Source: Natronomonas salina (GTDB lineage Archaea > Halobacteriota > Halobacteria > Halobacteriales > Haloarculaceae). From it: a DNA stretch of 64,000 bases. The stretch is from NCBI RefSeq assembly GCF_013391105.1, contig NZ_CP058335.1, forward strand, positions 1 through 64,000, given 5' to 3'. The notes beneath the pieces are model-generated. The model ran no database searches. It was not told the origin of the DNA and saw only the letters and a list, made by a program, of their open reading frames with translations. Of this stretch, positions 14,924 through 16,193 are shown piece by piece. Position 1 is the first letter of the stretch. Every line of letters begins with the position of its first letter. The position numbers and the translations under genes are program-made.

Positions 14924-14975
14924 CGCGCTGATCGGGGTTCTGTTCCGTGCTCGTTGGTATCGGGACAGAACAGCG

Positions 14976-15125
14976 GGCGTGGCGGGACTGAGGGAACGCG
15001 GAGCGTTCGCGAAGGTTGCCGTGGAGGTGACCGAACGGCGTGGGGGAGCAGGCGTGGCGGGACTGAGGGAACGCGGAGCGTTCGCGAAGGTCGCCGCGGC
15101 CGTGACCGAACGGCGTGAGGGAACG
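14976..15125. repeat. 75-bp tandem repeat, two copies
   Basis: Copy 1 is 14976-15050 and copy 2 is 15051-15125, with only a few differences in the middle and last bases. Each begins with a tRNA-Arg 3'-end fragment (GGCGTGGCGGGA) and contains the perfect hairpin GAACGC-GGA-GCGTTC (14994-15008 and 15069-15083). A third, truncated unit starts at 15126 and passes into a longer tRNA T-arm-like piece. Confidence 0.85.
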
Positions 15126-15133
15126 GCCGCGGC

Positions 15134-15204
15134 GGGAGTCGAACCGGAGCCAGACGTGCTCGCTCACTGCGTTCGCTGCGCGCGACTGGCAGGGTTCGAT
15201 TCCC
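15134..15204. repeat. imperfect hairpin whose arms resemble tRNA T-arms
   Basis: The left arm 15134-15153 and right arm 15186-15204 are near-perfect reverse complements (GGGAGTCGAACC paired with GGGTTCGATTCCC, plus GCCAG with CTGGC). Both contain the TTCGA core of a tRNA T-loop. About 32 bases separate the arms. No D-arm or anticodon arm can be built, so this is not a tRNA gene. Confidence 0.7.
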
Positions 15205-15247
15205 TTACGGTCAGCTGTCCGTCCTCGCTGCCGCTCGGACAGAACAG

Positions 15248-15321
15248 CGGGCGTGGCGGGAGTCGAACCCGCGCTCTAGAGGTTAGGAACCTCTCGCCGT
15301 AGTCCACTAGGCCACACGCCC
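15248..15321 (-). tRNA. tRNA-Arg (anticodon CCT)
   Basis: Reading the minus strand from 15321: a 7-bp acceptor stem GGGCGTG/CACGCCC, D-arm GCC...GGC with AGTGGA in the loop, anticodon stem AGAGG/CCTCT with loop TTCCTAA (anticodon CCT, decoding AGG), variable loop AGAGC, T-arm GCGGG/CCCGC with loop TTCGACT, and discriminator G. CCA is not encoded, as usual in archaea. The gene is 74 nt with no intron. Confidence 0.95.
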
Positions 15322-15373: not shown

Positions 15374-15736
15374 TCAGTTGGTCTCTTCTTCGGTCTCCGC
15401 GTCCGCGATGTCGAACTCCTCGTCGCCGCCCTCGGTGGTGGTCGACTCCGCCGCGGTGGTCTCGGGATTTCCGACGTCGGTCCCCGTCGTCTCGGCCGCC
15501 GTGTCGGTCGTGGTGCCGGTCTCGGTGTCGTCGCCCGGCGTGGCGCCCTCGCGCATCTCCTGGAGCTCCTGTTCGACCTCCTCGCGGCCCTTCTGGAACT
15601 CGCCCATCGCCTCGCCGGTCGAGCGAGCGAGCTTCGGGATCTTGTTCGCGCCGAACAGCAGTACAGCGATCAACAGGATAACGAGCAGCTCCGGACCGCC
15701 GGGAATCCCGAGCTGCAGGGGGAGTGTTTGTATCAT
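15374..15736 (-). CDS. tatA: TatA-like twin-arginine translocase protein (copy with long tail)
   Basis: 120 residues from ATG 15736. One N-terminal membrane helix (PELLVILLIAVLLFGANKIPKLA), the FGxxKxPxLA hinge and an amphipathic helix (RSTGEAMGEFQKGREEVEQE) define the TatA/TatE family, which forms the pore of the Tat export system for folded proteins. A Thr/Asp/Glu-rich tail of about 65 residues follows. TTATAG lies about 30 bases upstream of the ATG. A second TatA-like gene lies upstream in the same orientation. Haloarchaea rely heavily on Tat, and several Tat-signal proteins are encoded in this window. Confidence 0.93.
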   Translation of the reverse strand: MIQTLPLQLGIPGGPELLVILLIAVLLFGANKIPKLARSTGEAMGEFQKGREEVEQELQEMREGATPGDDTETGTTTDTAAETTGTDVGNPETTAAESTTTEGGDEEFDIADAETEEETN

Positions 15737-15800
15737 CGTGTGGGTGGGATTAACCGAGTAGCGATTATAGGCTTTTTCCTCGTGCTCAGTCGGGTTTTCT

Positions 15801-16046
15801 TCAGGCGTTGGTCGGTTCGGCGTCGGGTTCCGGCTCTGCAGCGACGGTTTCCGCCTCCGCCGTCTCCTGAACGCTCTGCAGTTCCTCATCGACCTGCTGG
15901 CGGCCCTTCTTGAACTCGCCGGTCGCAGACCCCATCGACCGCGCGAGGGTCGGGAGCTTGCTTGCGCCGAACAGCAGTATCATGACGCCCGCGATCAGCC
16001 CGAGTTCCATGGGCCCGAGCCCACCGACGAACAGTAGTGTTGTCAT
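15801..16046 (-). CDS. tatA: TatA-like twin-arginine translocase protein (short copy)
   Basis: 81 residues from ATG 16046: a membrane helix (PMELGLIAGVMILLFGASKLPTLA), the same FGxxKLPxLARSMG hinge, and an amphipathic helix GEFKKGRQQVDEELQ. It has the same architecture as the neighbour but a much shorter acidic tail. The ATG lies 64 bases upstream of the next gene's ATG region, and each gene has its own A/T box-like element (GCCTACAAG at about 16068-16077 here). They may be separately transcribed paralogues with different partners. No tatC gene is in the window. Confidence 0.92.
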   Translation of the reverse strand: MTTLLFVGGLGPMELGLIAGVMILLFGASKLPTLARSMGSATGEFKKGRQQVDEELQSVQETAEAETVAAEPEPDAEPTNA

Positions 16047-16193
16047 GGCTTCGAGTTCGCGGGTCGACTTGTAGGCCTTTCGGCGATTCCTCGGAACAAG
16101 TTCCATGCAACCGAATAGCAAGTGGCCGGTTCGGCGAGCGGGGGCAGCGAGCAGAAGTCAAACGTTTACGGGTTGCAGGCCGAACGCAGGGGT

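What the first reader, a model, noticed from the sequence alone, without database searches (positions are those of the whole stretch)
14964..15321. tRNA-Arg-derived repeat cassette next to the intact tRNA-Arg gene
A 24-bp direct repeat (14964-14987 and 15238-15261) includes the 3' end of tRNA-Arg; between the copies lie two 75-bp tandem units each starting with a tRNA end fragment and carrying a perfect hairpin, then a hairpin whose two arms look like T-arms (15134-15204). No integrase is nearby. It may be the scar of serial integration at the tRNA end, the remains of a small element that uses the tRNA end as attachment site, or a regulatory RNA locus.
Basis: seen in the sequence. Interest (0 to 1): 0.55.

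Follow-up and report, generated by a model that had tools for sequence, protein, structure and literature searches.

The report
Hairpin repeats copying tRNA gene ends
Directly after many tRNA genes, salt-loving archaea carry small hairpin repeats that end in a copy of that tRNA's own last 22 bases; the window holds one such array, and it appears to belong to a widespread, undescribed family of DNA or RNA hairpins.

Summary
The array is not a local oddity. It is one member of a family of structured repeats found just 3' of tRNA genes across haloarchaea. A unit reads V-hairpin / inverted T-arm / conserved hairpin with a T·T mismatch / direct copy of tRNA positions 52-73. A covariance model finds the family in 112 of 116 haloarchaeal genomes and in none of 124 other genomes of the phylum. 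In the window's genome, all 10 hits with E<=0.001 lie at tRNA genes.

Each copy matches its own tRNA (113 of 127 units beat every tRNA for another amino acid) and follows species-specific changes. It starts sharply at position 52 and usually stops at 73. The hairpin stem shows strong compensatory change. Sister species show gain, loss and decay at one tRNA-Lys site.

Most likely these are resident palindromic elements sitting at tRNA ends, multiplied, shrunk and kept in step with the tRNA by recombination between the tRNA-end copies. A functional RNA trailer is the main rival; transcription could not be tested. Serial-integration scars are unlikely: integrase-bearing elements at two sites displace intact tails. 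The conserved hairpin alone also occurs away from tRNA genes. I found no description in the searched papers.

The parts
15247..15321 (-). tRNA-Arg(CCT), intact; positions 52-73 (copy F0, the repeat source) = 15248-15269
   Evidence: positions counted from the T-loop
15215..15247 (-). V hairpin directly after the tRNA (CTGTCC...GGACAG, 15237-15242 / 15215-15220)
   Evidence: sequence
15193..15214 (-). R1: degenerate inverted copy of the tRNA 3' end (GGGAATCGAACC)
   Evidence: sequence; left arm of model hit 15133-15205
15133..15205 (-). A unit found by covariance model R1 (77.2 bits): inverted T-arm, 8-bp stem with T-T mismatch (CCAGTCG/CGTCTGG), inner GC-GAA-type hairpin, direct T-arm
15124..15145 (-). 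F1: direct copy of tRNA positions 52-73 (CGCCGCGGCCG in place of CGCCACGCCCG)
   Evidence: sequence; one search score 17
15092..15134 (-). 12-bp perfect palindrome joining the altered F1 acceptor (15123-15134) to the following inverted arm R2 (15092-15103)
   Evidence: inverted pair I1
15047..15121 (-). B unit 1 (75 bp): inverted acceptor arm, GAACGC-hairpin, acceptor copy F2 (15049-15063)
14972..15046 (-). B unit 2 (75 bp, 92% like unit 1): inverted arm, hairpin, acceptor copy F3 (14974-14988)
14963..14987 (-). distal copy of the tRNA end plus first bases of V (the reported 24-bp direct repeat; other copy 15238-15261)

Best explanation
The locus is a tRNA-anchored palindromic repeat array. 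Each unit consists of a V hairpin, an inverted copy R of the tRNA T-arm, a conserved hairpin c, and a direct copy F of tRNA positions 52-73, giving the chain F-V-R-c-F. SHOWN: the anatomy, its place 3' of tRNAs on the same strand, the sharp borders of the copy, the species-specific agreement of the copy with its own tRNA, and structure conserved through paired changes. INFERRED: a small non-coding palindromic element without genes of its own became established at tRNA 3' ends in the haloarchaeal ancestor, with the tRNA end duplicated at its far side. It persists there. Arrays grow and shrink by recombination between the F copies (and sometimes F+V), and the same exchange keeps F identical to the functional tRNA. 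The R arms stay complementary through selection on the hairpin or hairpin-templated repair. The tRNA is left intact, so the element does little harm. Whether the folded form acts as single-stranded DNA or as RNA is not settled.
For: Distribution: 20 of 20 genomes of the genus, 112 of 116 of the class, 0 of the other 124 of the phylum sample. Location: own genome 10 of 10 hits at E<=0.001; 26 of 26 best-per-genome class loci L148-L173 have a tRNA within 290 nt upstream on the same strand; 38 of 40 fetched regions of six sister genomes and G010 have an intact tRNA upstream, and the other two have a truncated tRNA end. Tracking: the copy scores 17.5 of 20 to its own tRNA vs 8.3 to other amino acids' tRNAs. 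Where same-isotype tRNAs of two species differ, both copies follow their own tRNA at 139 of 184 comparisons, crossed 1, otherwise 44 (comparisons share species and are not independent). Borders: identity .25 at position 51.92 at 52; after 73 it falls to .46 vs .36 for random pairing. Structure: 219 cells with both-side changes vs 60.5 shuffled. Turnover: at tRNA-Lys(TTT), G003 has F-V-R-c-F-V with two identical ~100-nt F+V copies, G016 has F-V only, G002 a remnant. Cores >=0.9 alike in one genome are shared only between tRNAs with near-identical ends: 2 of 16 vs 0 of 371 pairs.
Against: No enzyme was identified, and no empty site with clean borders was found; G002 is a remnant, not a pre-insertion site. 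The absence of near-identical cores at unrelated tRNAs (0 of 371) gives no sign of recent jumps, so mobility is inferred only. The conserved inner hairpin and paired changes in >100 genomes are also what a functional RNA would show. The hairpin core also occurs away from tRNAs (44 of 80 matches examined, mainly Halorubrum loci chosen by a core pattern), so the tRNA link is not a property of the core alone.
Confidence: 0.5

Rival explanations
1. Functional structured tRNA trailer: the tail is transcribed with the tRNA, folds through the inverted T-arm and direct T-arm, and either tunes 3' processing of the tRNA or is released as a small RNA (as recalled for rtT RNA of E. coli tyrT).
For: Strong covariation; same strand as the tRNA; the inverted arm follows its own tRNA at positions 57 and 59 (0.95 vs 0.48 and 0.97 vs 0.78); near-universal in the class.
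Against: Present on only 7 of 40 tRNAs examined in this genome and patchy between sister species, so not needed for any given tRNA. No shift of T-runs from the tRNA end to the tail end. G-U pairs hardly occur in the two hypervariable stem pairs (2 GT and 2 AC in 378 cells), although tRNA acceptor stems are also low (13 of 602), so this is weak. No transcript data were available.
Confidence: 0.25
2. Scars of serial integration and deletion of integrase-borne elements at tRNA ends, each leaving a partial tRNA copy.
For: Direct copies of a tRNA 3' end are what integration leaves. Integrase-bearing elements do occur at these sites (L225, L226), and the copied block 52-73 fits a T-loop type attachment core.
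Against: Those elements lie between the tRNA and an intact tail behind a 13-15 nt tRNA remnant, so they displace tails rather than create them. One conserved, covarying hairpin beside some 30 tRNA kinds is not expected from unrelated scars.
Confidence: 0.1
3. Fold-back (template-switch) replication of the tRNA 3' end makes alternating direct and inverted copies without any element.
For: The chain is strictly forward-inverted-forward. In the window an altered F1 is matched by an equally altered R2 in a perfect 12-bp palindrome.
Against: The core hairpin sequence is shared across genomes and tRNAs and is not derived from tRNA; arms alone could be made this way, the core could not.
Confidence: 0.1

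Closest known systems
E. coli tyrT 178-bp repeats / rtT RNA (recalled from general knowledge; no paper read)
   Same: Tandem units behind a tRNA gene, each containing a copy of the tRNA's own 3' end.
   Different: Bacterial and, as recalled, mainly at one tRNA locus. Here many tRNA kinds, an inverted T-arm and a conserved covarying hairpin. No Rfam family, RtT included, was reported over the tails in six loci searched to E 5.
Casposon insertion at tRNA 3' ends (PMC6977970, passages read)
   Same: Insertion at the end of a tRNA gene with duplication of target sequence.
   Different: There the duplication is 14 bp with only the last 4 bp of the tRNA; here 22 nt, positions 52-73, with no genes in the unit.
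tRNA attachment sites of archaeal tyrosine recombinases (PMC8371274, passages read; partial tRNA-Thr copy without a nearby integrase and prophages with partial tRNA copies in Haloquadratum, PMC3119063, passages read)
   Same: Direct copies of tRNA 3' ends flanking an insert, without harm to the tRNA.
   Different: Those inserts are kilobases and carry genes; here the insert is about 100 nt of hairpins, repeated and class-wide.
Palindromic MITE/REP-like repeats and integron attC sites (recalled)
   Same: Imperfect hairpins conserved in structure more than in sequence, with a frequent fixed mismatch.
   Different: No transposase or integron integrase linked; the ends copy the local tRNA.

Membership tests
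rtT RNA family (Rfam RtT) | scores on the Rfam RtT covariance model | tested here: not met
   six tail loci searched against all 4227 families to E 5; no RtT match listed
rtT RNA family (Rfam RtT) | stable RNA released from the tRNA precursor | not testable with these tools
   no transcript data
Casposon | 14-15 bp duplication overlapping the last bases of the tRNA | tested here: not met
   copied block is 52-73 and ends at 73 in most units
Casposon | cas1-like integrase within the element | tested here: not met
   unit median about 148 nt from tRNA end to copy end, too short for such a gene; no genome-wide cas1 search was made
Integrated element of a tyrosine recombinase | integrase gene between the two tRNA-end copies | tested here: not met
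   none in the window array; 10 ORFs around it hold no integrase
Integrated element of a tyrosine recombinase | direct repeat = tRNA 3' end with sharp borders | tested here: met
MITE / REP-like element | short, non-coding, palindromic, many copies per genome | tested here: met
   about 73-nt hairpin unit, 2-39 copies per genome at E<=0.01 in the genus
MITE / REP-like element | mobilised by a named transposase recognising its ends | not tested
   no partner enzyme searched for or found
Integron cassette array (attC) | attC end motifs and an integron integrase | not tested
   only the general likeness of folded sites was considered

The most novel reading that the evidence does not exclude
The tails are minimal cassettes moved as folded single strands. 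The R-c-F hairpin, with its frequent T-T mismatch, would be the folded recombination site of a tyrosine recombinase, and the tRNA T-loop the anchor site. tRNA ends in haloarchaea would then carry integron-like arrays of tiny cassettes (F-V-R-c, formally a dumbbell) that use and restore each tRNA's own 3' end.
Probability: 0.1. Interest if true: 0.88.

Novelty: new variant of a known kind. Interest (0 to 1): 0.62.

Why it matters
A structured repeat family sits behind tRNA genes in nearly every haloarchaeal genome sampled, and I found no Rfam family or held paper that describes it. It offers a clean natural case of concerted evolution between an essential gene's end and a non-coding repeat, and a set of conserved hairpins whose recogniser (a recombinase, a repair path or an RNA-processing enzyme) can be looked for genetically in tractable archaea. 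It also warns that partial tRNA copies near tRNA genes in these genomes are often tails, not prophage attachment scars.

Tried and rejected
Tried and rejected or inconclusive. (1) Serial-integration scar: weighed against displaced tails and rejected as the main cause. (2) Own-genome BLAST with the whole array: besides the array's own repeats only short palindromic matches (best E 0.006); the family was visible only with a structure model. (3) RNA versus DNA by G-U counts: inconclusive, because tRNA stems in these GC-rich genomes also have few G-U pairs; the stem placement also favours Watson-Crick pairs by construction. (4) Terminator shift: no difference. (5) Viral contigs with one exact core pattern and phage records by BLAST: no match; both are narrow tests. 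(6) Plasmid records: four matches, two haloarchaeal (one of these, L244, fetched: no tRNA found) and two on Paraburkholderia plasmids; the bacterial ones belong to a plasmid repeat with a differing inner hairpin, so I treat the likeness as probably chance. (7) Recent jumping between unrelated tRNAs: not seen. (8) Core similarity of the same isotype across genomes (0.577) is barely above that of other isotypes (0.55), so no strict vertical descent of cores could be shown. (9) Rfam on five non-tRNA core loci: one sub-threshold chance match. (10) Paper searches found no description of such tails; the library lacks most subscription journals, so absence from print is not shown.

Selection to keep in mind: the 130 units are 84 of 95 matches (nine opposite-strand echoes and two weak same-strand hits dropped) and 46 of 95; the matches left out are mostly those without a nearby tRNA in loci chosen by the core pattern. 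Units in one array are not independent. The tRNA-Trp copies in the own genome were read by eye; one search did not report that intron-containing tRNA.

Full report
CHECK. The window is the first 64 kb of a 3.75-Mb haloarchaeal chromosome. tRNA-Arg(CCT) lies on the minus strand at 15247-15321. Read on the tRNA strand, the array is a chain of forward (F) and inverted (R) pieces of the tRNA 3' end: F0 (the tRNA), V hairpin, R1, hairpin c, F1 (15124-15145), R2, hairpin, F2 (15049-15063), R3, hairpin, F3 (14974-14988), and then the first bases of V again. F1 has drifted from the tRNA, and R2 has drifted with it into a perfect 12-bp palindrome.

NOT ONE OF A KIND. Of 40 tRNAs of this genome that I examined, 7 have a strong copy of their own last bases downstream and none has one upstream: Lys-TTT, Lys-CTT, Ala-CGC, Leu-TAG, Arg-GCG, Phe and Arg-CCT. 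Sister species have tails behind tRNA-Arg(CCT) too: 11 of 15 gave a copy at the score limit; L020, L021, L024 and L026 did not. From 14 units I built model R1 (73 positions, 25 pairs). It hits 20 of 20 genomes of the genus, 112 of 116 of the class sample (43 of 45 genera) and, in a phylum sample of 148, 22 of the 24 haloarchaeal genomes and none of the other 124 (most of the genomes without a match are not listed there one by one). In the own genome all 10 hits at E<=0.001 lie at tRNA genes (the two at tRNA-Trp read by eye).

LOCATION. In 26 of 26 best-per-genome class loci (L148-L173) a tRNA lies within 290 nt upstream on the same strand. Of 40 regions fetched around listed hits in sister genomes, 35 show a tRNA at once, three more an intron-containing tRNA, and two (L113, L121) a truncated 13-15 nt tRNA end instead. 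Near those two tails lie integrase genes (Pfam Phage_integrase, 6e-13 for L225 and a sub-cutoff 1e-4 for L226). So mobile elements have entered between tRNA and tail. In contrast, an exact search for the inner core among named genomes gave 50 loci, and of 80 R1 matches examined in L148-L223, 44 have no tRNA nearby, chiefly in Halorubrum. The hairpin core is therefore broader than the tails.

THE COPY FOLLOWS ITS OWN tRNA. For 127 of 130 selected units with an upstream tRNA, the copy scores 17.5 of 20 against its own tRNA and 8.3 against tRNAs for other amino acids; 113 of 127 beat all of those. Identity by position is .08.43.25 at 49-51, then .92-.98 at 52-64 and .85-.92 at 65-72. Just past 73 it falls to .46 (random .36), and only 14 of 106 units share 75% of the next 40 bases. 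G52 and G53 are common to nearly all tRNAs, so the true left border is between 52 and about 57. Where the same tRNA differs between two species, both copies follow their own tRNA in 139 comparisons, are crossed in 1, and otherwise fail in 44. The inverted arm matches only about 52-63, but it too follows the own tRNA at 57 (.95 vs .48) and 59 (.97 vs .78).

STRUCTURE. In A4 (76 distinct rows) 219 cells change on both sides against 60.5 (sd 5.8) in shuffles and at most 58 in slid controls. A4 was fitted to the model, which favours the structure; A2, aligned by MAFFT without a structure, shows the same (34 vs 10.8). Two stem pairs run through GC, CG, AU and UA. One pair is a T·T mismatch in 86 of 93 rows of A4 and 44 of 94 of A3.

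TURNOVER. At tRNA-Lys(TTT), three sister genomes with the same flanks hold F-V-R-c-F-V with two identical ~100-nt F+V copies (G003), F-V only (G016), and a short remnant (G002). At tRNA-Leu(TAA), G002 has a tail where G003 and G016 have none; G003 keeps what looks like a decayed copy further on. Within one genome, cores at least 0.9 alike at different tRNAs occur only where the 3' ends are near-identical: 2 of 16 pairs against 0 of 371. The numbers are small, but they point to exchange through homology of the ends and give no sign of recent jumps to unrelated tRNAs.

READING. I take the tails as resident palindromic elements at tRNA ends, kept in step with the tRNA by recombination between the copies (0.5). 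A functional RNA trailer (0.25) is the main rival and cannot be tested without transcripts. The T-run test and the G-U test do not decide between RNA and DNA. Integration scars (0.1) and pure fold-back copying (0.1) explain parts but not the conserved core. The boldest reading not excluded is an integron-like array of folded mini-cassettes anchored on the T-loop (0.1 as a separate estimate).

KNOWN RELATIVES. The likeness to E. coli tyrT repeats and rtT RNA is recalled, not read. Casposons (PMC6977970, passages) duplicate 14 bp reaching only 4 bases into the tRNA. Archaeal integrase sites (PMC8371274, passages) and Haloquadratum partial tRNA copies (PMC3119063, passages) concern kilobase elements. 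Nine paper searches returned no description of these tails; most listings were seen only as titles and abstract starts.

Noticed in passing
L179, L182, L212 (named genomes): The core hairpin, read on the other strand, lies in tiny ORFs (RRSCSxRCAGCD in each) just before and overlapping the start of a following gene that looks by eye like argB (L179), an amino-acid biosynthesis gene (L182) or leuC (L212). Gene names are my reading of the translation, not a search result.
   Followed up: partly
L174-L223, many Halorubrum loci: The same core hairpin recurs in a longer repeat without tRNA, flanked by GGGACTCAAAGGGGC-like and GGGGCTTTGG-like sequence; similar contexts appear in Halorussus, Haladaptatus and Halobellus.
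   Followed up: no
L243 1514-1544 (Paraburkholderia plasmid): A 31-base stretch nearly identical to the archaeal core lies in a repeat found on 76 plasmid records; the inner hairpin differs on the other plasmids looked at, so the likeness may be chance.
   Followed up: partly
L224 961-1464 (G000:C1:166960-167463): tRNA-Trp (intron gene, read by eye) has a tail behind it and a second tail in front of it that starts with a 21-base piece of the tRNA-Trp end; L144 of G010 shows a similar doubled Trp tail 1.1 kb apart.
   Followed up: partly
L018 downstream of tRNA-Arg: A long run of short tandem units (TTCGTTCRGGACGCACTCGC-like) follows the tail in G006.
   Followed up: no
window 15374-16121, minus strand: Two adjacent TatA-type genes lie upstream of the tRNA (Pfam TatA_B_E).
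   Followed up: no
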